Positions 9,959 through 37,237 of a stretch of DNA of 43,201 nucleotides are shown piece after piece (the stretch's first letter is position 1; every line of letters begins with the position of its first letter). Made by a program: the position numbers and the translations under genes. The notes under the pieces are model-generated. The model was given only the letters and a program-made list of their open reading frames with translations. It had not been told where the DNA came from and ran no database searches. The stretch is from a virus. The stretch lies in the IMG/VR virus record IMGVR_UViG_3300021962_000208, positions 1-43,201 of that record. One strand, written 5' to 3'.

Positions 9959-10201
9959 ATGAAAGGGAGACTTGAAATTGGACAGAACAAATGGCTGATA
10001 CTTGAAAATGTGATGGGGGAGTGGTTTCAAATCACCGAGTCTCACCGATGCACCGAGGTTGAGGTTGGCGAGATGGGGCGGTCAATGAATCGTGGTTGGT
10101 CATTCTATAGAACGCTGGACACACCCGTACCTACGCATACCTATCCTCCAACGGTGCGCCTCTATTTATTCGCTGATGAAACGGATGGTGAAGAAGAATG
10201 A
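9959..10201 (+). CDS. Hypothetical protein ending in an ETDGEEE tail
   Basis: An 80-residue protein of unknown function, preceded by GAGGAGG. Its last codons contain a 25-base block (10175..10199) that is repeated exactly at the end of the next gene (10852..10876), so both proteins end DETDGEEE. It couples by ATGA to the methyltransferase. Confidence 0.55.
   Translation: MKGRLEIGQNKWLILENVMGEWFQITESHRCTEVEVGEMGRSMNRGWSFYRTLDTPVPTHTYPPTVRLYLFADETDGEEE
10175..10199 (+). repeat. 25-base direct repeat, first copy
   Basis: The block that begins GATGAAACGGATGG occurs here at the end of one gene and again at 10852..10876 at the end of its neighbour, without a mismatch and in the same reading frame. 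The copies lie 677 bases apart and frame the methyltransferase gene. Confidence 0.85.
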
Positions 10202-10878
10202 AAGTTCTTGTAGCCTGTGAGTTTAGTGGCCGAGTGCGAGAAGCATTCCGAGCGAGGGGTCATGATGCTTGGTCGTGCGACCTACTACCTGCTGATGACG
10301 ATTCGCCCTATCATTACCAATGCAATGTCTTTGATGTACTTGACAAGGGGTGGGACTTGATGATTGCACACCCACCATGTACATATCTTACAGTTACGGG
10401 TAACAAATGGTATTACCATCCCGATGACAAACACCTACCAATGGATGAGCGCAGACCTCATCCACGATTTCCAAACAGGCGACAGCACAGGGAACATGCG
10501 GTTATTTTCTTCATGGAGTTGATGAGAGCCGACATTCCCAAGATAGCCGTTGAGAACCCTGTGGGTATCATGTCCACGAGATTCCGTAAGCCCGACCAAT
10601 ACATTCAGCCATACGAGTTCGGTGACCCTGAGCGTAAGAAGACAGGGCTGTGGTTGAAAGGACTACCATGCCTTGTGCCTAATGACATCGTTGAACCGAA
10701 CATTGTTCAGTACAAGAACGGTAAAGGCACAGACTCAAAGTGGCACATGGACACAATTAAGTTGCCACCACTTGAACGCATGAAAGCACGCAGTATCACA
10801 TTCCAAGGCATTGCTGAAGCAATGGCTGACCAATGGGGGAGCCTACTTGGAGATGAAACGGATGGTGAAGAAGAATAA
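10198..10878 (+). CDS. Phage-type DNA cytosine methyltransferase
   Basis: A 226-residue protein of the short phage family annotated as C5-cytosine methyltransferase-like. It opens with a Rossmann-type strand and loop (VLVACEFSGRVREAF), has the PPC motif with C61 as the expected catalytic cysteine, and an ENP motif at 119..121. The segments GIMSTRFRKPDQ and FGDPERKKTGLWLKGLP are typical of that family. It is shorter than usual C5 methyltransferases (300 or more residues), with a reduced target-recognition region. No partner restriction enzyme is visible, so protection of viral DNA from the host or marking of DNA is likelier than a restriction-modification role. It ends in DGEEE although no SD-dependent gene follows directly. 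Confidence 0.7.
   Translation: MKVLVACEFSGRVREAFRARGHDAWSCDLLPADDDSPYHYQCNVFDVLDKGWDLMIAHPPCTYLTVTGNKWYYHPDDKHLPMDERRPHPRFPNRRQHREHAVIFFMELMRADIPKIAVENPVGIMSTRFRKPDQYIQPYEFGDPERKKTGLWLKGLPCLVPNDIVEPNIVQYKNGKGTDSKWHMDTIKLPPLERMKARSITFQGIAEAMADQWGSLLGDETDGEEE
10852..10876 (+). repeat. 25-base direct repeat, second copy
   Basis: Exact copy of 10175..10199 at the end of the methyltransferase gene. Here the stop codon becomes TAA and the ATGA junction is lost. Confidence 0.85.
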
Positions 10879-13953: not shown

Positions 13954-14402
13954 ACACAGCAATCAAACTGGGCGAAGGCTCGCTGACGATGTGCGACATC
14001 AACGACTTTCGTGACACGCTACGCAAAGAGCATACGGTGGTCACGCTGTGCCGCTTCCCTCCTAAGTGGAGCATGGTGGACAAGAACGAGCGACACCACT
14101 ACTACTTTCGGGCGCACAACAATGACCCCAAGATTTGGGCACATGCAGTGGGTATCGTCATGGATTTAATTGAGGATGGAAAGAATGTCCTCTTGCACTG
14201 CGTTCATGGCCGTGACCGTACAGGCGGGGTGGCTTACGCAGTATTACGACTCTTCGGCTATGAGCACGACCAAGCGCATCTTGCGATGGTGGATGCTCGC
14301 CCTTCGCAGGAAGCGGAGTGGGCTATCAAAATCCCATACCGCCGTCCACTGTACGAGGAAATAGTTGAGGAGTATTTAAACCAACAAAGAGAAAGGAGAT
14401 GA
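13950..14402 (+). CDS. Dual-specificity-type phosphatase
   Basis: A 150-residue protein with H83-C84-VHGRD-R90-T91, the HCX5R(T) signature of dual-specificity and tyrosine phosphatases, followed by a helix (GGVAYAVLRLFG). The size fits a minimal single-domain phosphatase. Arg, Asp and His residues before the loop could supply the general acid but cannot be picked by eye. Its last ten codons are the TATA element of the next operon, read in frame as EYLNQQRERR, so the C-terminus is set by the promoter. It is a second phosphatase besides that at 527. Confidence 0.75.
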   Translation: MNTAIKLGEGSLTMCDINDFRDTLRKEHTVVTLCRFPPKWSMVDKNERHHYYFRAHNNDPKIWAHAVGIVMDLIEDGKNVLLHCVHGRDRTGGVAYAVLRLFGYEHDQAHLAMVDARPSQEAEWAIKIPYRRPLYEEIVEEYLNQQRERR

Positions 14403-14407
14403 GAAAC
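14371..14407 (+). promoter_or_regulatory. Repeated promoter element, copy 5 (inside a gene end)
   Basis: TATTTAAA at 14373..14380 followed by the full block, with the ATG at 14408 standing 27 bases after the box. The element lies within the last 32 bases of the phosphatase gene, whose TGA (14400..14402) is part of the GAGATGAG tail. It is upstream of the DUF932 gene. Confidence 0.75.
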
Positions 14408-15421
14408 ATGCACAATTTAGCACAAACAAAGAACGGACAATACATGACGGCATGGGCTGGCGACACCCCATGGCACGCACTGGGAACACAAGCAGAAGGA
14501 CTGATGACCGCTACCGAGGCGTTGCAGTACGCACACCTTGACTGGTTGGTTGAAAAGCGACCACTTTACAATCGCAATGAAGCGGGTGAGTTGGAGGTCG
14601 TTCCCGATACTTTCGGTGTGTTCCGCAGGGATGAGAACGAAGATGGGAGTATCAACTGGATTCCCCTCAATCGTGGCACTGCGGTGGGGCGGGTGTATCA
14701 AGTGTTCCAAAATGTAGCAACGCTTGATTTTCTTGACGAACTAACCCAAACCCAAGAGGCCAAGATTGAGGTCGTAGGCGCATTGGGTAACGGTGAGAAG
14801 GTATGGGTACTTGCGAAGTTGCCCGACAGCATTCTCATCAACGGCGTGGATAAGATTGACCAGTATATCCTCATCGTGAACAGCCACGATGGTAGCGGAG
14901 CACTGAAGATTTTCCTCACACCTATTCGTGTGGTCTGTCAAAACACGCTTACCATGGCACTGCAAGGCCGACAAGGTGGTTACAACATGCGACACACTGG
15001 CAAGATTTATGACCGCTTGGAAGAGGCACGCAGGGTCTTGGGTATGGTGAACAAGGACTTCAAGGAGTGGGGTGAATTGGCTCAAGAGTTGGTGCAGGTC
15101 AAACTAAGTGAGGATGAGATGGAGTCTTATTTCATTGACGCTCTCAACCTCACCTTCAATGACAAGGGCGACCTTACGACCCGTTCAGCCAACATACTGA
15201 ACACGGTCAAGGGCTTGCTCGGCAACGAGAAGAACACTCTCAACGGTATGGAAGGCACGGCATGGGCGGCATACAACGCCGTTACCGAGGCCATTGACCA
15301 CGAGTTCACCACGCTGGCCAACGGTAAGGTGAGTGAGAAGCGCATGGAGTCGGCACTCTTCGGTACCTACTCCCGCACCAAGCAGAAGGCATTCGTGAAG
15401 GCATTGGAGTTGACGGTATAA
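14408..15421 (+). CDS. DUF932 family protein
   Basis: A 337-residue member of the phage/plasmid family DUF932. Recognisable parts are the opening GDTPWHALGTQ, the strand FGVFRRDENEDG, the block VGALGNGEKVWVLAKLP, and FLTPIRVVCQNTLTMAL in the middle. The family is widespread in plasmids and phages; its function is not established and it is often found beside replication or recombination genes. Length is typical. The ATG at 14408 is preferred to that at 14399 because of the TATA spacing. Confidence 0.8.
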   Translation: MHNLAQTKNGQYMTAWAGDTPWHALGTQAEGLMTATEALQYAHLDWLVEKRPLYNRNEAGELEVVPDTFGVFRRDENEDGSINWIPLNRGTAVGRVYQVFQNVATLDFLDELTQTQEAKIEVVGALGNGEKVWVLAKLPDSILINGVDKIDQYILIVNSHDGSGALKIFLTPIRVVCQNTLTMALQGRQGGYNMRHTGKIYDRLEEARRVLGMVNKDFKEWGELAQELVQVKLSEDEMESYFIDALNLTFNDKGDLTTRSANILNTVKGLLGNEKNTLNGMEGTAWAAYNAVTEAIDHEFTTLANGKVSEKRMESALFGTYSRTKQKAFVKALELTV

Positions 15422-15927
15422 TGAACATCTTCGTACTACACACTGACCCCATCATCGCCGCACGGATGCACTGCGACAAACATGTGCCCAAGATGTGCGT
15501 TGAAGCCGCACAAATGATGGCCTCAGCCCTGCGCCGACATGGTGCTACTGATGAGCAGATGCCGCTGACCAAAGCGGGTACACCCTACAAGGGTGGCTAC
15601 GCTCATCACCCTTGCACCGTATGGGCAGGAGATAATCGTGCTAACTTTCAATGGTTGGCTAATCATGCACAAGCGTTGTGCTTTGAATATCTTTCACGAT
15701 TCAGTAAAGTACATTCTTGCGAGAAACCTATACGACAAATGCACAAGTTGTATCAAACAATCATCAAAGGTGACCTCACACCATTTACACAAGCCATGCC
15801 CGACGAATATCGTGATGATGATGCGGTCAAGGCATACCGAGCCTACTACCATTCCAAGCAGTTCGCCAAGTGGGAGAAGGGTACACCTGCCCCCGACTGG
15901 TGGCAAGGCGTGGAGGTGACGGCGTGA
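15421..15927 (+). CDS. Conserved phage protein, CDKHV family
   Basis: A 168-residue protein of a conserved phage family of unknown function. Typical features are the opening NIFVLHTDP, the block HCDKHVPKMCVEAAQMM, HHPCTVWAGDNRANFQWL, and LTPFTQAMPDEYRDDDAVKAYRAYYHSKQ. Conserved His, Cys and Asp residues suggest an enzyme, but no activity is known to me. Start overlaps the previous stop by one base (TAATG). Confidence 0.65.
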   Translation: MNIFVLHTDPIIAARMHCDKHVPKMCVEAAQMMASALRRHGATDEQMPLTKAGTPYKGGYAHHPCTVWAGDNRANFQWLANHAQALCFEYLSRFSKVHSCEKPIRQMHKLYQTIIKGDLTPFTQAMPDEYRDDDAVKAYRAYYHSKQFAKWEKGTPAPDWWQGVEVTA

Positions 15928-19188: not shown

Positions 19189-19609
19189 ATGGGTCGGGCT
19201 TGGACTTGCATTAACCCACATTCAATACAACGCTATGGTTGTAAGAAGCCCTGTTGCCTACGGCTTCAAAATAATCATGTTCGCTAAACCGAGGAAAACT
19301 TGTACCGATGAGCAGTTGAAGTGTATGGAAGTGTGGGCGCAAGCCAACGGCTTTACCTTCATGGAAACTGCTCAACTCCACGGTGACAAACTCAACAGAC
19401 TGTTAGAAGTCTTGGAGCCTTTTCATTCACTGATGAAACAAACCGACCTTAACACCATCAAAAAGATTCGTTGGTTACAAGAGAATCCTATACCCAAGAC
19501 GCTGTGGCGAGATGATGGTACACGGCGCAAAGTCAAGATAGGTAGGAACTGGAAGAAGTTCATGTATTGGGCTGAGGCATGGGACGCATTCTGTGAGGGA
19601 TTGGAATGA
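19178..19609 (+). CDS. Hypothetical protein
   Basis: A 143-residue basic protein of unknown function. Its ATG (19178) lies 11 bases inside the previous gene and follows GGTGG by five bases; a GTG at 19169 is possible. It couples by ATGA to the HNH gene. Confidence 0.55.
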   Translation: MNLEWVGLGLALTHIQYNAMVVRSPVAYGFKIIMFAKPRKTCTDEQLKCMEVWAQANGFTFMETAQLHGDKLNRLLEVLEPFHSLMKQTDLNTIKKIRWLQENPIPKTLWRDDGTRRKVKIGRNWKKFMYWAEAWDAFCEGLE

Positions 19610-20544
19610 AAAAGACATGTAAGCAGTGTGGCATTTCATTTACACCCTCAAGAAAAGACAAGCAGTATTGCAGTGAGCGTTGTGGGCACATCTTCCGTAG
19701 CCGTGCCAAAAGAAAGCGAGAGCGAAAAGATAGGTATTGCCTCGTTTGCGGAACGCTCATTACTGACAAATACAAAACGAAGTATTGCGGTGATGTTTGT
19801 GTTAAGAAGGTAAATAGTGAAAGAGAGTGTGCTAAAGCAAGAAAAGAAGTTCGTGAACGGCAAAAACGAAATCCAAAGTATTGTGTGTCATGTAATGTAC
19901 AACTGAAAACCACTACAAGAAATTACCATCAAAAGAAACATTGCAACCCCTGTGGGGAAGTACATTTGAAAGCATATCAAGAACAACACAGGAAGGAAAA
20001 CGACTACACTGAGTATTTTAGAAAGAATCACGCTAAGAAAATGCAAGACCCTACCTACAGAAAGAAGCGAAGGCTTGCTCAAAAAAGCAGAAGAGAAAAC
20101 AACCCTGTAATTGTTGATTGCGAAGAGTGTGGGACTCCATTTAGACGAATGCGATATGAGAGATATTGTACACATTCTTGTCGTAAAGTTGCAGAATTGA
20201 AGAGGCGGAACAAACCATCCAACATACTGAGTAATCGTTTTCGGAGAGGTATTCGTAAATCACTCAAGGGTGGAAAAAGTAAGTCAACATTTGAAGCACT
20301 TGATTTCACACCCGATGAATTGCGTGCCCACTTTGAGTCATACTTCACGGAAGAAAATGGGTACTCATGGGACAACATAGGCAAGTGGCACATAGACCAC
20401 ATCCGACCTGTATCATCGTTCAACTTCACGACCACGGAATGTGAGGACTTCAAGAAATGTTGGGCGTTGGAGAACCTACAACCCTTGTGGGCCGCTGACA
20501 ACTTGGCTAAGGGTAATGAGTGGGATAGCGAAGTGAACGCTTGA
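19606..20544 (+). CDS. HNH endonuclease with four zinc knuckle pairs
   Basis: A 312-residue protein. The nuclease domain is at the C-terminus: WHIDHIRP with H262, D264 and H265, then ENLQPLWAADN with N290 and N299, as in HNH enzymes related to phage homing nucleases. In front of it are four Cys pairs (CKQC/CSERC, CLVC/CGDVC, CVSC/CNPC, CEEC/CTHSC) that look like zinc ribbons and a long Arg/Lys-rich linker, likely for DNA binding. The gene is AT-rich (23 of 60 bases G or C at 19801..19860, against 33 of 60 at 20701..20760 in the RFC gene) and ends an operon, which fits a mobile free-standing homing nuclease. Whether it cuts DNA as a homing enzyme is an inference. Confidence 0.75.
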   Translation: MKKTCKQCGISFTPSRKDKQYCSERCGHIFRSRAKRKRERKDRYCLVCGTLITDKYKTKYCGDVCVKKVNSERECAKARKEVRERQKRNPKYCVSCNVQLKTTTRNYHQKKHCNPCGEVHLKAYQEQHRKENDYTEYFRKNHAKKMQDPTYRKKRRLAQKSRRENNPVIVDCEECGTPFRRMRYERYCTHSCRKVAELKRRNKPSNILSNRFRRGIRKSLKGGKSKSTFEALDFTPDELRAHFESYFTEENGYSWDNIGKWHIDHIRPVSSFNFTTTECEDFKKCWALENLQPLWAADNLAKGNEWDSEVNA

Positions 20545-24743: not shown

Positions 24744-27139
24744 TGATTATTGACTTCATCTCCAACGACCCCTACGAACCGCTCACCATCTACGAGCGTA
24801 CCCGTGGGGCTGACGGGGTGTTGAAAGAACGCTACATCACCCACGAGGATGAGGGGTATGTGTACCCCTTCTGTTGGTTGCGGCAAAATGCTCCCACTTG
24901 GGTTATCAACCGCCTTAGCAACCTCCATGCTCGCATCAATAAGAACGAGGTAGCCACTGGACTTGACGGTGGTGAGTTGTGGAAAGTTGAAGTGAATGAC
25001 CCTAATGTATTGTGGGAAATTAAAGAGTTGGTTGGTAAGTGGACATACGAGGCTGACTTAAATTATCTTGACCAAATCCTTCTCACCAATTACCCCGACA
25101 AATTGCCGGAGTTTCACCCACGCAAGTGGTATTACGACTTGGAGTGGCAAACAACAGGCGAAGGTGCCATCACGGTCATGGCCGTGGCCGATACGCACGC
25201 TGAACACAATGTTGTGTTTGCTTGGAGTCAAGACTCTATTCGTGACACTATTACCAAGACCGAGTGGATTGACCGCTACGAAGGGTACGAGTTGCGTACC
25301 TATCCCAATGAGGACAAGATGCTCATTGGTTTCCTTGAACATCTCAAGGAGTGCGACCCCGATATGTTGATTGCTCACGCTGGTGGGTGGGCTGACCTGC
25401 CGAAATTACATGACCGATTGGGTGCTTTGCGCCACGACATGTCACCCCTCGGTATCTTCCTTGCACCTAAAAAGGACGGGTCGGGTTACAAGACTACGGC
25501 TCAGCCTATCAAGGGGCGACTGGTCTTTGACACAGCGGCACGGTGGGAAGAAGGCAGTGGCTTTGAAGGCGTGTGGCAAAAGAGTGGGCGTGGCAAAGCA
25601 CAACAACGCAAGTTGAATTGGTTCGCTACTGAACTTGGATTGGGCCACAAACTTACTGATGAAATAGATGGCATGACCGTACACAATGGTTGGGCTGAAT
25701 ACTACGATGACTTTGTGGATTACTGTTTAGTTGATACCACCTTGCTTCGTGACATTGATAACAAACTCAACTGCACTGATTTTCACATTGCGCTACAACA
25801 AGTTGCTGGTGTACAGTTCGGTAGCACACACAATGTGAGCCGCTACTTCCGTGGTTTGATTGGTCGTAAAACAAATCTCAAAGCACCTACTTCTTACATT
25901 GAGGACAGACCCGAACTACAGGCCGCATGGGTTATGCCTCCCGTCGCTGGTCGTCATGAGAATGTGGCACTGGTGGACTTCGCATCTCTATACCCTAACA
26001 TTATTCTCTCAGCCAACTTATGCTGGACAACGCTGACTGACCAAGCGGGGCCGAATGTTCTCACGCTTGACATACCCCCTAAGATGGATGATAAGGGTAA
26101 CTACATTCCCGGTACGGGTGGTGTGTTCCATTGGCGACAAGATAAGGAGGGTTTGCTTCCGAAGGTTGTCAAGGACATGCTCGCTCTTCGTAAGCACTAC
26201 AAGGGGTTAATGAAGGCGGCAACCGACCCCGATGAAAAGTTAGGCTACAACATGTTACAGATGGCCGTCAAGGTCGCTGTGAATGCTGTGTACGGTATGG
26301 TGGGAAGCCGTAAGGTTCGTGGACAGTGGAGCAGTTATGAGATTGCTCAATCTATTACCTATCTTGGCCGTGAGTCTATCAGTATGCTGGTGGAGCGTAG
26401 CGAAGAAATGGGGTATCGTGGGTTGGCTGGTCACACCGATTCGTGCTACATTCAAGTGCCTTTAGACGAGGCTGAAGTTGTGGCTCAACGACTCAGTGGT
26501 ATTGCACAAAATGAAATGGGGTTAAAATATCTTGATGTGGAGTTGGAGGCTTTCTTCCCGTACTGGTTTACGGCCAATGTGAAGAACCGTAACTTCGGTA
26601 TTAAGTCGTGGCCTCCCGAAGATGCGGGTGACATGAAGGTGACAGGTTTCTCCATCAAGGCTTCAAATGCACCTCCGCTGACAAAAGAATTACTGGGCAA
26701 AGTATTCCATATGATTTCTACTGGGAATGAAGAAGATGAAATCTTTAACGAGATTCGTCCTGCTATTCGTGAGGTGTACATGGGTAAGCGACCTGCTACG
26801 GATGCCTCATCTTATGGTGCTGTCAAGAAGGACTTGGATGAATACGGTGTGGTAGTGCCTAACCCTGCGAAAGCGGCACGATATTCCAACGAATATCTTG
26901 GTACGGACTACAAGAAGAATGACAGTGTACAATGGGTATTCATTGATGATGTACCCGAAGGTCAACCGTTCTGTAATGTGATTGCGTATGATGATGAGCG
27001 ACAACTCAGTGAGTATGGAATTGATTGGGCGACCATTGTACAAAAATGGATTCATGATAAATTGAAGTCGGTGTATGAAACACTTGACTGGGATTTGGAA
27101 AGGCTGACGGCACGCCGAGTGCCGAGAAAACTATGGTGA
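24740..27139 (+). CDS. polB: Family B DNA polymerase with an altered motif C
   Basis: A 799-residue replicative polymerase. Exonuclease motif I is DLE (D133, E135), Exo III is at YCLVDTTLL, motif A is DFASLYP (413..419), and motif B is KVAVNAVYG (511..519). Motif C reads GHTDS (564..568), so the usual DTD is HTD; D567, which matches the metal-binding second aspartate, is kept. Exo II is AHAGGWADLP, with Asp but without the usual Asn. The polymerase should copy viral DNA with the clamp and loader from the same operon, with 3'-5' proofreading. The start may equally be the second ATG, at 24743. Confidence 0.93.
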   Translation: MMIIDFISNDPYEPLTIYERTRGADGVLKERYITHEDEGYVYPFCWLRQNAPTWVINRLSNLHARINKNEVATGLDGGELWKVEVNDPNVLWEIKELVGKWTYEADLNYLDQILLTNYPDKLPEFHPRKWYYDLEWQTTGEGAITVMAVADTHAEHNVVFAWSQDSIRDTITKTEWIDRYEGYELRTYPNEDKMLIGFLEHLKECDPDMLIAHAGGWADLPKLHDRLGALRHDMSPLGIFLAPKKDGSGYKTTAQPIKGRLVFDTAARWEEGSGFEGVWQKSGRGKAQQRKLNWFATELGLGHKLTDEIDGMTVHNGWAEYYDDFVDYCLVDTTLLRDIDNKLNCTDFHIALQQVAGVQFGSTHNVSRYFRGLIGRKTNLKAPTSYIEDRPELQAAWVMPPVAGRHENVALVDFASLYPNIILSANLCWTTLTDQAGPNVLTLDIPPKMDDKGNYIPGTGGVFHWRQDKEGLLPKVVKDMLALRKHYKGLMKAATDPDEKLGYNMLQMAVKVAVNAVYGMVGSRKVRGQWSSYEIAQSITYLGRESISMLVERSEEMGYRGLAGHTDSCYIQVPLDEAEVVAQRLSGIAQNEMGLKYLDVELEAFFPYWFTANVKNRNFGIKSWPPEDAGDMKVTGFSIKASNAPPLTKELLGKVFHMISTGNEEDEIFNEIRPAIREVYMGKRPATDASSYGAVKKDLDEYGVVVPNPAKAARYSNEYLGTDYKKNDSVQWVFIDDVPEGQPFCNVIAYDDERQLSEYGIDWATIVQKWIHDKLKSVYETLDWDLERLTARRVPRKLW

Positions 27140-27144
27140 GAACA

Positions 27145-28596
27145 ATGGGAAAAAGAACACTGCAAATGGAGAGCAACAACGAATTGATGGCAAATACAAT
27201 GTCCAAGAGTGGATTTACATTCACTTCGGCATTGCACGAGTTGGTGGATAACGCCATCGTGACAGCGAAGAACATTTCTGTCAATTTGTTGGTGGACAAT
27301 CAAGGACAACGAAGTATCAAGAAAATCTCAGTGATTGATGACGGGTGTGGCATTTCTCTTGAGGATTGTGCCGTTGCATTGAGTGTTGGTGCGAGGACAA
27401 ATCAAGGCATTCATGAACACGGTGTGGGAATGAAAAGTGCCATCGCATACTTTGGCGATACCGATATTTCCAAAGGATTGGACAAAATCTTCTCTTACGA
27501 TGGAGTGGATTCATACGCAATCGTTGGTTACGAAGGAAACAATTTACACATTGATGACGACATTTCTGTTCCCGATTCAACAGGCACAAAAATTGTGATG
27601 AATGTTTTGTTGAATGTCTTTGCGGCAAAACGGGTAAATAGCCTGCGAGATTCACTCGGTGTACGCTATGCTAACTTTATCAACGGGGGAGGTAAAATCG
27701 TCATTAACGAAGTTGATTTGATTAGTAATAAAGTAATCAAAGATGCAAAGGGTAATCCAACATCCATTACAGTGCCAGCAATCACTCCACCATACTTTCA
27801 CCCTACAACGCTTACCAATGTTCATCTTCTCAAAACTGAAGTAGCAACGCAAAATGTTGTTGCAGAACTTACCATTGGAATGAGTCCCGAAGATTATGAG
27901 GGGGTGTGGGCGAGACAAAGTTATGGAGGTGGTATTGATGTCGTACAAAATGACCGAGTTATTATGCACCGTGAGTACGAACCACTAACCGTATGGCGAG
28001 CAAAGAATCACACCTCATTGAATGGACTTGTCGGACAACTCGTTGTTAAAGAAGGACACTTGCCTACTACTCCAAAGAAAGACAATATCCAACAAACCGA
28101 TGAATGGTACGAAATGAAAAAGGCCATTGCGGAAGCAATCAAAGATGCCAAAATTACTTCTTTCTTCAATCCACCCGAAAACGAAGATGATTACGATAAC
28201 CTCAGTGAATCTCTCATTCGTGATGGTTTAGCCAATTACCTTGAATCACAGGTCTTACCGAATGGTGAAAAGATATGGACTGATGTAAAAACAGAAGAGT
28301 CCACAGATACAAACCTCAGTATGGATGTTACAGCATACAGTGGTGACACTTTGTATGTTTTTGAGGTTAAAAAGGGTAACTTCAATGCTCAAGACATGAA
28401 TCAACTCGTTGGTTACATGGTGACAGTTGGTGCCACACACGGTGTTGTGTTTGCGAAAAATGTGCTGGCTAATGCAAAGAAACAATTTAACGAACATTGG
28501 AAGCCATTGCTTAATGATTTTAACATTCAATACTGGGAAGAGTCAAGTGCACAACACAAAACTGTACTTACTACATATGTTGATGTGGGGAATTGA
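27145..28596 (+). CDS. GHKL ATPase fused to a PD-(D/E)XK-like nuclease domain
   Basis: A 483-residue protein with a Bergerat-fold ATPase at the N-terminus: N box ELVDNA (N36), G1 box DDGCGI (65..70) and G2 box HGVGMKS (92..98). The region to about residue 320 continues like the transducer part of MORC/Hsp90-type proteins. The C-terminus has D394, then E407-V-K409, the D...ExK spacing of restriction-type nucleases, followed by a helix (DMNQLVGYM). MORC-like ATPases joined to nuclease domains are known from bacterial restriction systems, so DNA clamping plus cleavage is the best guess. The gene is AT-rich (22 of 60 G or C at 27541..27600 and at 28321..28380; 33 of 60 in the polymerase at 25441..25500). 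The ATG at 27145 follows GGTGAG. Confidence 0.7.
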   Translation: MGKRTLQMESNNELMANTMSKSGFTFTSALHELVDNAIVTAKNISVNLLVDNQGQRSIKKISVIDDGCGISLEDCAVALSVGARTNQGIHEHGVGMKSAIAYFGDTDISKGLDKIFSYDGVDSYAIVGYEGNNLHIDDDISVPDSTGTKIVMNVLLNVFAAKRVNSLRDSLGVRYANFINGGGKIVINEVDLISNKVIKDAKGNPTSITVPAITPPYFHPTTLTNVHLLKTEVATQNVVAELTIGMSPEDYEGVWARQSYGGGIDVVQNDRVIMHREYEPLTVWRAKNHTSLNGLVGQLVVKEGHLPTTPKKDNIQQTDEWYEMKKAIAEAIKDAKITSFFNPPENEDDYDNLSESLIRDGLANYLESQVLPNGEKIWTDVKTEESTDTNLSMDVTAYSGDTLYVFEVKKGNFNAQDMNQLVGYMVTVGATHGVVFAKNVLANAKKQFNEHWKPLLNDFNIQYWEESSAQHKTVLTTYVDVGN

Positions 28597-28597
28597 A

Positions 28598-28708
28598 ATG
28601 GGATTTTGGGACAGACTGTTTAAACGATTGAGAACGCAAGAGGAAGAGCGTATCATTGAGGGGTACTACGAGCAAGCGAAACGATTGTACGGAGATGAGG
28701 AAGAATGA
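28598..28708 (+). CDS. Charged microprotein (36 aa)
   Basis: A 36-residue protein (opening MGFWDRLFKRLRTQ, ending GDEEE) in an amphipathic helical pattern. GGGG lies seven bases upstream, and an ATGA junction links it to the next gene. The start resembles phage and plasmid micro-proteins that bind membranes; function unknown. Confidence 0.45.
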   Translation: MGFWDRLFKRLRTQEEERIIEGYYEQAKRLYGDEEE

Positions 28709-28953
28709 GTGCTAATTTCCCTTGGCATTGTGAGTTTCATGCTGAGCACGGGCCGGGTGCTTTTGAGGCAGATTGTGGTTGTTATCCTCGTATGTTAAAA
28801 TGGCTTGAGGAACATCTTTCATCTTGTCCTTCGTGTGTTAATTTGGATGAAGAAGAGAAAGATTTCATGTTATATATCCGAGGGGGAATAAAACTTGATT
28901 TGTGGTGGAACGGTACTGGGGCTATGCACGAAGAACGAGGTGAAGAAGAATGA
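28705..28953 (+). CDS. Small Cys-rich protein
   Basis: An 82-residue protein with C9, H12, C24, C26, C41 and C44, enough for one or two zinc sites, and an acidic tail (RGEEE). It is coupled by ATGA on both sides. No family recognised. Confidence 0.55.
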   Translation: MSANFPWHCEFHAEHGPGAFEADCGCYPRMLKWLEEHLSSCPSCVNLDEEEKDFMLYIRGGIKLDLWWNGTGAMHEERGEEE

Positions 28954-29126
28954 GAAGAGATGTATGTTGGCTTTGTGGTGGAAAACTGATTTGGGGTGCT
29001 GACTTTGATGCGGAAGATTACGGTTATGAGGGTGATGGCATAGTTGCTACATTGTCATGTTCTAATTGTAATGCTGATGTAACTTATGTACTTTTAAACG
29101 AGGATGAAAAGAATGAGCAGAATTGA
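28950..29126 (+). CDS. Zinc-ribbon microprotein (58 aa)
   Basis: A 58-residue protein with C6/C9 and C37/C40, the spacing of a classic zinc ribbon, separated by an acidic hairpin. Short phage proteins of this pattern (CWLCGGKLIWG, then CSNCNADVTY) are common. It overlaps the next gene by 14 bases. Role unknown. Confidence 0.6.
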   Translation: MRRDVCWLCGGKLIWGADFDAEDYGYEGDGIVATLSCSNCNADVTYVLLNEDEKNEQN

Positions 29127-29298
29127 AGATGAAGTATGCGCCAAGATTCAGCAACGGGCTGAGGTCGGCAAGGCCAAGTATGGCGTGACGATGGAGCGTG
29201 GCGACCTTTCCCTCATTGAGTGGCTTACTCACCTACAAGAAGAACTGATGGATGCCGCCGTATATGTTCAACGCTTGATTGAAGAGGTGAAGGAATGA
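29113..29298 (+). CDS. MazG-like protein (all-alpha NTP pyrophosphatase family)
   Basis: A 61-residue protein whose RAEVGKAKYGVTMERGDL is followed by EWLTHLQEELMDAAVYVQRL. This matches a short phage family related to MazG, in which the EExxD motif (E43, E44, D47) binds magnesium. It may hydrolyse nucleotide triphosphates, but it is shorter than full MazG, so activity is uncertain. The ATG at 29113 is ten bases after GAGG; the ATG at 29104 is too close. Confidence 0.65.
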   Translation: MSRIEDEVCAKIQQRAEVGKAKYGVTMERGDLSLIEWLTHLQEELMDAAVYVQRLIEEVKE

Positions 29299-29435
29299 AT
29301 ACGATTAAGACGGCTACCGTTCACATGCGGGATTACCAACTTGAGTTCACGGACTTGACATTGGATGACATCAATTGGTTGCGCCAAGCGTTGAATCAAT
29401 TGGAACAACACATCTTGAGTGGTGAAGAAGAATGA
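29295..29435 (+). CDS. Small hypothetical protein (46 aa)
   Basis: A 46-residue protein with a strand region and then an amphipathic helix (LTLDDINWLRQALNQLEQHIL), ending SGEEE. It has ATGA junctions on both sides. Function unknown. Confidence 0.45.
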   Translation: MNTIKTATVHMRDYQLEFTDLTLDDINWLRQALNQLEQHILSGEEE

Positions 29436-30361
29436 GTGAAGTCCAATTTTGGGTAGCGTATGATAGCGTGGGCGAAAGCCGTGTTACCATCAATGAGGCT
29501 AAGCGAGGCGAGCAGTACGAATGCTTGGAGTGCAAGGGCATCATGATACCCAAAAAGGGCGACATCAACCGACACCACTTCGCTCACAAGGCCGATTTCT
29601 CTTGTACGGGTGAGGGCCAACGACATTTGTACATCAAAGAAACAATGTATTCGTTTCTTCAAAATAACCTTGAGCGTTTGCATCCACTTACAAACAAATC
29701 GTTGTCCGTTGAAATGGAAAAGAAGTTCAAAGGGCACATACCCGATGTGATTCTTAAGTGGCACAGTGGAAGAAAAATGTGTTATTTAGCGATTGAAGTG
29801 TGTGACACATCACCTTGCACAAAGGAGAAGATTGACGCTTATGGTAAGAAGAATATCTGCGAAATAAAAATTACTGACTGGAAAGAAGAACAAATGAATA
29901 ACCCGTTTTTCATCGCCATCACTCTATACGATGCTGTATATCAGCAATTGATGAAGGTACACCATGCGAATATATTGAAGCGAATAACTGAAAAAGAAAA
30001 AGACCTCAAAATCATTCGTAGTAAATTAACTTCAGTTAGGCAACAGGTAAAACACGCAGAAGAGATGTTAGAAGAAGAGATTCGTGATAAACATAAGAGA
30101 TTTTTTATTGGGAAATGGAGGAAGCATAGTGACGGTGAGTTTTATGCCTACTTACCAAGTTCGTGTGCAATGGGGGATTTAGCAATTTTGAAAAATAAGA
30201 AAAATGACTATTTTGAGTTGGTGGTTGTGACGCAACATATTGAGACAGATTGGAAGTACAACTATGCGTGGTTCAGTTATACAACTATTGCAAATAAAAG
30301 GGAGAGAGATTCTTTTGATTTTGCTAACGGGGATAACTCTAATCGGTGGTGGGCTGAATGA
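29432..30361 (+). CDS. CoiA-like nuclease
   Basis: A 309-residue protein. The first 70 residues hold a zinc finger typical of CoiA-like proteins (YECLECKGIMIPKKGDINRH with C31 and C34, then HFAHK and a Cys at 58). The nuclease-like part has D105 (PDV) and E122 (AIEVCD), in place of the D...ExK/Q pattern; the last position is Cys. CoiA is a competence protein that processes DNA, and viral relatives may do so in recombination. The C-terminal 130 residues are AT-rich and of unknown fold, with a coiled coil near residues 190 to 225. It lies next to the Cas4-like gene with a four-base overlap. Confidence 0.65.
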   Translation: MSEVQFWVAYDSVGESRVTINEAKRGEQYECLECKGIMIPKKGDINRHHFAHKADFSCTGEGQRHLYIKETMYSFLQNNLERLHPLTNKSLSVEMEKKFKGHIPDVILKWHSGRKMCYLAIEVCDTSPCTKEKIDAYGKKNICEIKITDWKEEQMNNPFFIAITLYDAVYQQLMKVHHANILKRITEKEKDLKIIRSKLTSVRQQVKHAEEMLEEEIRDKHKRFFIGKWRKHSDGEFYAYLPSSCAMGDLAILKNKKNDYFELVVVTQHIETDWKYNYAWFSYTTIANKRERDSFDFANGDNSNRWWAE

Positions 30362-35731: not shown

Positions 35732-37237
35732 ATGACAGAAAAAGATAGCGCAAAAGGTGGAAAAGCACAGATACACAACATTCGGGCGGCAAAGACGGTT
35801 GCAGAAACCGTCAAGAGTACGCTTGGCCCGATGGGTATGGACAAAATGATGGTTGATGGTGGCGGTAATGTCATCGTCACCAATGACGGAGCAACCATTC
35901 TACGAGAGTTGGATGTCTCCCACCCCGGTGGGAAAATGATTGCTGAAGTCGCTCGTACCCAAGAATCCCTGTGTTACGATGGAACAACGAGTACAGTCGT
36001 GTTGGCTGGTCAATTGCTTGGCAACAGCGAGATGCTGTTTGAGAAGGGATTGCATCCCAATGTGATATGTCGTGGCTATCACGAGGCCGCTCAAATGGCG
36101 GTGAAATATCTTACCGAAGAAGTGGCACAAAATAGCAATGACCGTAGAAGGCTTGTAAATGTAGCCAAGACTGCCATCACGGGTAAGACCCTTGAAACAG
36201 CCCTTGATGCTGTGTCCGAGTTATGTGTGAGTGCAGTGGAGAGGGCTGGTGATGCTGAAAGCGTCAAGGTCGTATCTTTCCCCGGTGGCTCGCTTGAAGA
36301 TTCATACTTGTACAATGGTGTGATTGTAAACAAAGACTTCGTGCTTGAAGGTAATGACTTTTACAACAACTTGTTGCTTATCAACACGGGTCTTGAAACT
36401 GAGAAGGCTGAGGATAATGTACAGGTGCAACTTGATGCTAAGTCGTATCAATCCTTCAAGGGTGCAAGCAAGGCTGATTTGGTAGCCAGTGCTAAACACA
36501 TCGTGGACGCTATGCCTAATGGTGGTGTTGTTTTTGTGCGTGATGGTGTGAGCGACATGGTGTGTTCATATCTCAAGAAAAACGGCATCATGGTTGTGCG
36601 TCGTATGCCCGAATCTTCTATGCGTGCGTTGAGTCGCATGACGGGCTTAGACATCGTGCAAGTACCCGAAGAAATTGAGGGCAACGCCGATGTTTCAATT
36701 ACTCGTGAAAGGAAAAACGATGTTTGGTACTTGTTTGTCAATAGCAAGGAAGAGAGTGAAGAGGCTACGCTGGTCTTGCACGGTGCTACATCGCACACAC
36801 TGGAAGAAGTTGAGCGTGGTTTTGATGACGCACTGGGTGTTGTCTCGCTGGTCATGAAGAGCGGGCAATTCGTCGTGGGTGGAGGCAACGCCTATGTGCG
36901 TATGGCCACGCATCTGCGCCAACACGCCGCTTCGGTGGGTGGTCGGGCACAGATGGCCATTGAATCGTTTGCTGATGCTTTGGAGGTCATTCCTGCTACC
37001 ATCGCTGAGAACGCTGGCCACGACCCGTTGGACACGATTCTTGCTATGCGCCACGAAATCTTACAGGGCAGGTTGTCGGTTGGCCCCGATGTCACCGAAG
37101 GTGGTGTACGAGACTTGCTGGCTGATGGTGTGATTGAGCCTGTTGTATTGGTGCGACAAGCCGTATTGAGTGCCAGCGAAGTCACCAATGCTATTCTACG
37201 CATTGATGACATCGTGGCTCGCCGCCCGGTACAGTGA
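35732..37237 (+). CDS. ths: Group II chaperonin (thermosome)
   Basis: A 501-residue subunit of the archaeal/eukaryotic-type chaperonin, a little shorter than host thermosomes (about 540). NDGAT (51..55) and DGTT (83..86) bind ATP; ERGFDDAL (D366) has the hydrolytic Asp. ALEVIPATIAENAGHDPLD near the end is a hallmark. Gly before DGTT is Tyr. A chaperonin that helps fold viral proteins such as capsid or tail proteins is the usual explanation in magroviruses. It is the largest gene in this operon and lies just before the structural cluster. Confidence 0.95.
   Translation: MTEKDSAKGGKAQIHNIRAAKTVAETVKSTLGPMGMDKMMVDGGGNVIVTNDGATILRELDVSHPGGKMIAEVARTQESLCYDGTTSTVVLAGQLLGNSEMLFEKGLHPNVICRGYHEAAQMAVKYLTEEVAQNSNDRRRLVNVAKTAITGKTLETALDAVSELCVSAVERAGDAESVKVVSFPGGSLEDSYLYNGVIVNKDFVLEGNDFYNNLLLINTGLETEKAEDNVQVQLDAKSYQSFKGASKADLVASAKHIVDAMPNGGVVFVRDGVSDMVCSYLKKNGIMVVRRMPESSMRALSRMTGLDIVQVPEEIEGNADVSITRERKNDVWYLFVNSKEESEEATLVLHGATSHTLEEVERGFDDALGVVSLVMKSGQFVVGGGNAYVRMATHLRQHAASVGGRAQMAIESFADALEVIPATIAENAGHDPLDTILAMRHEILQGRLSVGPDVTEGGVRDLLADGVIEPVVLVRQAVLSASEVTNAILRIDDIVARRPVQ

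What the first reader, a model, noticed from the sequence alone, without database searches (positions are those of the whole stretch)
27145..28596. GHKL (MORC-like) ATPase joined to a nuclease-like domain, inside a viral replication operon
The sequence shows N, G1 and G2 boxes of a Bergerat-fold ATPase (N36, DDGCGI, HGVGMKS) and, near the C-terminus, D394 with E407-V-K409 of a restriction-type nuclease. MORC-like ATPases linked to restriction nucleases are known from bacterial defence systems. In an archaeal virus the pair could be an anti-host or superinfection-exclusion nuclease, a DNA-end clamp, or a topology enzyme for replication. The gene is AT-rich compared with polB and lies directly after it, so it looks acquired.
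Basis: partly seen in the sequence, partly recalled or inferred. Interest (0 to 1): 0.85.

Follow-up and report, generated by a model that had tools for sequence, protein, structure and literature searches.

The report
Swappable viral MORC-type ATPase–nuclease gene
Some tailed viruses thought to infect marine archaea carry, directly behind their DNA polymerase gene, a single swappable gene for a DNA-clamp-like ATPase fused to a restriction-type nuclease; its design matches a proven bacterial antiviral enzyme, so it is probably a weapon against competing DNA rather than part of the viral replication machine.

Summary
ORF 27145-28596 (+, 483 aa) is a GHKL/Bergerat ATPase with an S5 transducer, fused to a PD-(D/E)XK nuclease. 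Pfam, a diversity-assisted AlphaFold model (pLDDT 79) and Foldseek support both halves. The ATP-site residues, the S5 lysine K312 and the nuclease residues E355, D394, E407, K409, Q420 and Y424 are invariant in 13 viral proteins sharing down to 20% identity with the window protein, and in two bacterial plasmid proteins. The S5 domain carries the published MORC signature (GIDVVQNDRVI), so 'MORC-like' is tested rather than only recalled. The nuclease has a RecB/Cas4-type QxxxY motif and is not a Shedu SduA_C domain by sequence. The gene is not core replication machinery. It occurs in 7 of 33 magrovirus lineages, its presence/absence needs 7 changes on the polB tree, it is present or absent between viruses with near-identical polB, and its own tree contradicts polB (AU p about 1e-4). 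It is under strong purifying selection (dN/dS about 0.04). Best explanation: a horizontally traded one-gene accessory nuclease, ATP-gated like bacterial paraMORC3/VcSduA, acting against foreign DNA. No biochemical test exists; target and self-protection are unknown. The architecture is known in bacteria; the archaeal-virus, polB-slot cargo form appears new.

The parts
27145..28596 (+). GHKL-S5-PD-(D/E)XK fusion protein, 483 aa plus stop
27145..27609 (+). GHKL (Bergerat-fold) ATPase domain, about residues 1-155
   Evidence: PF13589 E=1.8e-8; Foldseek to Hsp90, GyrB, SMCHD1, TopoVI-B; boundary approximate
27238..27252 (+). N box E32-L-V-D35-N36
   Evidence: E32, D35 and N36 invariant in 13 viral proteins
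27337..27354 (+). G1 box D65-DGCG-I70
   Evidence: D65, G69 and I70 invariant
27418..27438 (+). G2 box H92-GVGMK-S98
   Evidence: H92, G93, G95 and K97 invariant
27583..27591 (+). G147-T148-K149, fourth ATP-site motif
   Evidence: G147 and T148 invariant
27610..28164 (+). S5/transducer domain, about residues 156-340
   Evidence: AlphaFold model; GyrB-43K and SMCHD1 matches; boundary approximate
27931..27963 (+). MORC signature G263-IDVVQND-R271-VI (GhXhhpXXRhl)
   Evidence: motif scan: 0.23% of shuffles have it anywhere; also in the Priestia relative; definition from PMC2292703
28078..28080 (+). S5 lysine K312 (candidate ATP-sensing lysine finger)
   Evidence: invariant
28192..28584 (+). PD-(D/E)XK nuclease domain, about residues 350-480
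28207..28209 (+). E355, first acidic residue of the nuclease, on the opening helix
   Evidence: invariant
28324..28326 (+). D394, predicted metal-ligand aspartate
   Evidence: invariant
28363..28371 (+). E407-V-K409, the (D/E)XK motif
   Evidence: E407 and K409 invariant
28393..28416 (+). D417..Q420-L-V-G-Y424, RecB/Cas4-type QxxxY motif
   Evidence: D417, Q420, L421 and Y424 invariant
27137..27144 (+). polB stop and junction: the point at which the gene is present or absent in sister viruses
   Evidence: L016/L017, L031/L029, L045/L048
24740..27139 (+). polB, the conserved upstream neighbour
   Evidence: PF00136 E=1.4e-41
28597..30357 (+). rest of the variable slot up to the PDDEXK_1 gene (small ORFs and a CoiA-like protein)
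   Evidence: slot length 193-4027 nt across 47 loci

Best explanation
The gene is a one-gene accessory nuclease carried as exchangeable cargo in the slot between polB and the RecB-like nuclease gene of some magroviruses. Shown: GHKL+S5+PD-(D/E)XK architecture with complete active-site motifs, patchy presence, transfer between viruses, purifying selection. Inferred mechanism: as in other GHKL+S5 enzymes, two protomers dimerise through their ATPase domains when ATP binds, the S5 lysine K312 senses the nucleotide, and the closed clamp holds or loops DNA so that the C-terminal RecB-like nuclease is licensed to cut. Inferred role: destruction of DNA other than the producing virus's own, most likely a competing virus in the same cell (superinfection exclusion), possibly host DNA as well. 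Self-sparing is unexplained; no partner methyltransferase travels with the gene in general.
For: Full set of ATPase and nuclease residues invariant at down to ~20% identity, so both activities appear selected together. dN/dS 0.037-0.055 against 0.065-0.124 for polB in the same pairs. Presence scattered: 7 of 33 lineages, 7 changes on the polB tree, shuffled mean 6.4. Scarless presence/absence between near-identical viruses. Transfer: L016 and L031 share 94% in this protein but 67% in polB; AU tests reject each gene's topology on the other (p=0.0003 and 0.0001). A bacterial full-length relative (hhalign 99%, E 8e-18) lies in a plasmid island with dcm, SNF2 and restriction endonuclease genes. 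In magrovirus lineage L021-L023 the same slot also holds an HNH nuclease and a C5 cytosine methyltransferase. The matching architecture in V. cholerae VcSduA is an experimentally proven anti-phage restriction enzyme that needs both ATPase and nuclease residues (PMC12137116).
Against: No activity has been measured. VcSduA's nuclease is a SduA_C/DUF4263 domain and this one does not match it, so the analogy is of architecture, not orthology. The gene sits in the replication operon. Neither the window's methyltransferase nor the C5 methyltransferase is coupled to it, so self-protection is unexplained. 'Foreign DNA' as target is inferred.
Confidence: 0.5

Rival explanations
1. Accessory repair or recombination factor: a MutL-like, ATP-gated nickase or clamp that works with PolB and PCNA during viral replication or repair.
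For: Directly behind PolB and in the same direction as the clamp-loader, primase-like and ERCC4 nuclease genes; MutL models are among the best NCBIfam hits to the ATPase (1.7e-6).
Against: Near-identical viruses lack it; 7 changes on the polB tree; the nuclease is PD-(D/E)XK, not the MutL endonuclease; distant viral relatives sit in other gene contexts.
Confidence: 0.2
2. Host-chromosome degradation: a nuclease that destroys host DNA for nucleotides or takeover, sparing viral DNA.
For: A lytic lifestyle is proposed for magroviruses (PMC10768690); nuclease motifs intact.
Against: Such a function would be expected to be kept in a lineage, whereas this gene is absent from most relatives.
Confidence: 0.12
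3. Counter-defence or lysis-protection protein analogous to T4 RIIA, which also has GHKL+S5 and a variable C-terminus.
For: RIIA proteins are among the structural matches in BFVD; patchy distribution suits an arms-race gene.
Against: RIIA is not reported to have a nuclease domain (own knowledge); here the nuclease residues are among the most conserved positions.
Confidence: 0.1
4. Selfish intronless homing-type nuclease that spreads by cutting the polB junction of viruses that lack it.
For: Same insertion point after the polB stop in all magrovirus lineages found; transfer between divergent viruses.
Against: No co-conversion tract: polB flanks of L016 and L031 stay 94-100% identical to their gene-less sisters up to the junction and are not closer to the other carrier; an ATP-gated MORC module is not known from homing enzymes (own knowledge).
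Confidence: 0.06

Closest known systems
paraMORC3 family (Iyer et al. 2008, PMC2292703)
   Same: GHKL + S5 + C-terminal RE-fold domain with E-D-ExK motif and similarity to RecB nucleases; some members are standalone genes.
   Different: The published family is cellular; paraMORCs are said to lack the MORC S5 motif, whereas this protein has it. No paraMORC3 reference sequence was available for direct comparison.
VcSduA, type I-D Shedu (PMC12137116)
   Same: N-terminal GHKL ATPase and C-terminal PD-(D/E)XK nuclease in one protein; single-gene system.
   Different: VcSduA is longer (catalytic K557), bacterial, and its nuclease is SduA_C/DUF4263; this nuclease gives no Pfam or profile match to SduA_C.
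'ATP-binding protein' WP_241097392 on Priestia megaterium plasmid NZ_CP092389
   Same: Full-length homologue with the same motifs, including the MORC S5 signature.
   Different: About 23% identity; bacterial plasmid restriction-modification island.
Phage GHKL proteins of the RIIA type
   Same: GHKL + S5 in a virus.
   Different: Different C-terminus; not reported as nuclease fusions (own knowledge).
GHKL-nuclease relatives in IMG/VR contigs L188, L189, L190, L192, L195
   Same: Same three-domain architecture with all catalytic residues.
   Different: 20-24% identity to the window protein, other virus or mobile-element contexts.

Membership tests
MORC family | All four GHKL ATP-binding motifs | tested here: met
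MORC family | S5-fold domain after the GHKL domain | tested here: met
   AlphaFold and Foldseek to GyrB-43K, SMCHD1, TopoVI-B
MORC family | S5 signature GhXhhpXXRhl | tested here: met
   GIDVVQNDRVI at 263-273 in the window and equivalents in the other 7 magrovirus-clade proteins tested; absent in 5 distant viral relatives
MORC family | Groups with MORCs before other GHKL families in sequence searches or a tree | tested here: inconclusive
   PDB profile search gives TopoVI-B and MORC4 at similar, insignificant E-values; no tree with MORC references was built
paraMORC3 | GHKL + S5 + C-terminal RE-fold nuclease with E-D-ExK | tested here: met
   E355, D394, E407, K409
paraMORC3 | Lack of the MORC S5 signature | tested here: not met
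   signature present
paraMORC3 | Sequence grouping with published paraMORC3 members | not testable with these tools
   no reference sequences held
Shedu (type I-D, SduA) | SduA_C/DUF4263 nuclease domain (PF14082) | tested here: not met
   no Pfam hit at E<=1; no hmmsearch match; hhalign of profiles 0.1%
Shedu (type I-D, SduA) | GHKL ATPase N-terminal domain | tested here: met
RecB/Cas4-type nuclease | D...ExK...QxxxY motif series | tested here: met
   D394, E407-K409, Q420-Y424; weak Cas_Cas4 hits in 8 of 9 members
RecB/Cas4-type nuclease | Fe-S cluster cysteines (Cas4, AddB) | tested here: not met
   no cysteine in residues 345-483
MutL | Full-length MutL equivalog score | tested here: not met
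   27 bits against cut-off 180, N-terminal domain only
Topoisomerase VI-B | Partner TopoVI-A (Spo11-like) subunit encoded nearby | tested here: inconclusive
   none among the neighbours scanned with Pfam, but the record may be a fragment
Homing endonuclease | Co-conversion of flanks around the insertion | tested here: not met

The most novel reading that the evidence does not exclude
Magroviruses trade a self-contained, ATP-gated MORC nuclease as a weapon in virus-virus conflict: a one-gene restriction or exclusion system without a methylase partner that tells self from non-self DNA by topology, ends or replication state. It would be the first such enzyme used by a virus of archaea.
Probability: 0.33. 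Interest if true: 0.8.

Novelty: new variant of a known kind. Interest (0 to 1): 0.58.

Why it matters
GHKL-nuclease fusions have so far been discussed as cellular restriction or Shedu-like defence genes. Finding the same design as rapidly exchanged cargo inside archaeal virus replication operons suggests that viruses use it themselves. It provides a small (483 aa), naturally diverse family, with matched gene-plus/gene-minus viruses, for asking how an ATP-driven clamp licenses a nuclease and how such enzymes spare self DNA. [quoted passage not shown]

Tried and rejected
Shedu membership: tested with Pfam SduA_C, SduA_C proteins fetched from 299 genomes and profile-profile comparison; negative. 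Core replication enzyme: rejected because of presence/absence among near-identical viruses. Homing-type spread: no co-conversion tract. Partner genes: the SNF2 helicase, the window methyltransferase and the C5 methyltransferase are not coupled to the gene; records are fragments, so absence is weak evidence. Cellular orthologues: none in genome contigs by pattern; in about 1,180 sampled genomes of three phyla only generic GHKL proteins without this nuclease. Poseidoniales genomes could not be drawn as a group. The first AlphaFold model (9 close sequences) failed on the ATPase half (mean pLDDT 44.5); adding five distant viral relatives gave 79. Foldseek ranks Hsp90 first, probably helped by its length; not read as Hsp90 membership. 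Philosof 2017 (magroviruses) and Gu 2025 (Shedu classes) were not held and could not be checked.

Full report
The observation. The ORF at 27145-28596 (+) encodes 483 aa and follows polB (stop at 27139) by five bases. HATPase_c_3 scores above its curated cut-off at residues 25-103; weak NERD and Cas4 signals fall on residues 363-442. Close viral relatives (77-100% identity), plus a 67% group found later, gave a first AlphaFold model in which only residues ~350-480 were confident; Foldseek matched it to the restriction enzyme EcoT38I (probability 1.00), the RPB5 fold, CRISPR nuclease Can2 and RecU.

Distant relatives. A single-protein search of plasmid records found a Priestia megaterium 'ATP-binding protein' covering 88% of the query (E 2e-9) and a Ligilactobacillus one. 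Profile comparison aligns the Priestia protein over 393 columns (E 8e-18) and the Ligilactobacillus protein over 378 (E 5e-13), through the nuclease motif. The Priestia gene lies among dcm, SNF2 and restriction endonuclease genes. An alignment including these was used to scan viral contigs and returned full-length relatives at 20-24% identity to the window protein in other contigs of 38-327 kb (L188-L193; L195, on a 9 kb contig, in a further scan). In the alignment of 13 viral proteins the ATP-site residues (E32, D35, N36, D65, G69, G93, G95, K97, T148), the S5 lysine K312 and the nuclease residues E355, D394, E407, K409, D417, Q420 and Y424 are all invariant. With this alignment AlphaFold reaches mean pLDDT 79, and Foldseek finds Hsp90, SMCHD1, GyrB 43K and TopoVI-B at E about 1e-11 to 1e-15, confirming GHKL plus S5.

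Is it MORC-like? Iyer et al. (PMC2292703) define MORCs against other GHKL proteins by an S5 motif GhXhhpXXRhl. Residues 263-273, GIDVVQNDRVI, fit exactly, as do all eight magrovirus-clade proteins tested and the Priestia protein; 0.23% of shuffled versions of the protein contain the motif anywhere. The five distant viral relatives lack the strict motif. The same paper describes paraMORC3, a GHKL+S5 protein with a C-terminal RecB-like E-D-ExK nuclease, which is the architecture seen here. VcSduA, described as having this organisation, protects against phage and needs both the ATPase and the nuclease (PMC12137116). The nuclease here is however not a SduA_C domain by sequence.

Where it sits and how it moves. 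In every magrovirus locus where polB is also on the held DNA, the gene lies directly behind polB. Across 47 loci with both flanks located, the space between polB and the next conserved gene is 193-4027 nt, and twelve of them carry the gene. After merging near-identical polB proteins it is in 7 of 33 lineages. On the polB tree the label needs 7 changes, no fewer than for shuffled labels (mean 6.4). Sister viruses with 93-96% identical polB DNA (96-99% identical protein) differ by clean presence or absence of this one gene, starting at the polB stop codon (L016/L017, L031/L029, L045/L048). L016 and L031 share 94% of this protein but 67% of PolB, and AU tests reject each gene's tree on the other gene. 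dN/dS is 0.037-0.055, lower than for polB in the same pairs; since dS is near saturation for most pairs, these ratios are rough. Flanks show no co-conversion tract, against homing. One pair (L014/L015) is 98-99% identical in PCNA and polB and about 50-60% identical from the PDDEXK_1 gene onward, so the slot borders a recombination breakpoint, unless L015 is a chimeric assembly.

Mechanism and rivals. Shown: domain composition, intact motifs, patchiness, transfer, purifying selection. Inferred from GHKL+S5 enzymes in general: ATP-driven dimer closure around DNA that licenses the nuclease. Inferred from VcSduA, from the restriction-modification island of the Priestia relative, and from the HNH plus C5 methyltransferase in the slot of lineage L021-L023: action against foreign DNA. 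Not shown: activity, substrate, or how self DNA is spared; methyltransferases are not generally coupled to the gene. The repair/replication rival is weakened because close relatives lack the gene; host-DNA degradation and RIIA-like counter-defence remain possible.

Context. The window carries PolB, an RFC-like clamp loader, an ERCC4-type nuclease, a SNF2 helicase and a chaperonin. The names 'magrovirus' and Poseidoniales host rest on this gene set as described in PMC10768690 and PMC10160649 and were not tested independently. None of the magrovirus papers that were searched mentions a GHKL, MORC or Hsp90-like gene; Philosof 2017, the founding description, was not available.

Limits. Virus records are metagenomic fragments; presence/absence pairs could in principle include assembly errors, but several states recur in separate records (L016/L050; L031/L053; L029/L030; L021-L023). 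The genome survey covered three phyla only and not Poseidoniales.

Noticed in passing
L021:14840-16415 (also L022, L023): In this gene-bearing lineage the same slot also holds an HNH endonuclease (PF14279, 1.4e-6) and a C5 cytosine DNA methyltransferase (PF00145, 1.4e-44), a restriction-modification-like neighbourhood.
   Followed up: partly
window 29432-30361: CoiA-like protein (PF25164, 8.8e-11), patchy among magroviruses; a 41% identical relative sits in the same slot of L015.
   Followed up: no
window 10198-10878: DNA methyltransferase family phrog_757 (1e-64), patchy among magrovirus records and not linked to the GHKL gene.
   Followed up: partly
L014/L015, between polB and the PDDEXK_1 gene: Viruses 98-99% identical in PCNA and polB but only about 50-60% identical downstream: a recombination breakpoint in or beside the slot (or a chimeric assembly).
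   Followed up: partly
window 35732-37237: Viral chaperonin (thermosome-like) whose best cellular match in the pattern scan is only 37% identical.
   Followed up: no
window 14399-15927: DUF932 protein (1.3e-55) followed by a pyrimidine-dimer glycosylase-like protein (PF03013, 6.9e-7).
   Followed up: no
window 19606-20544; L045:10739-11698; L058:10412-11347: HNH-like protein with treble-clef Cys motifs, placed differently in relatives (before RFC in the window, before the ERCC4 gene in L045 and L058): another mobile nuclease gene.
   Followed up: no
L195:800-5997: A distant GHKL-nuclease relative sits between two serine recombinase genes, so the family also rides on other mobile elements.
   Followed up: no
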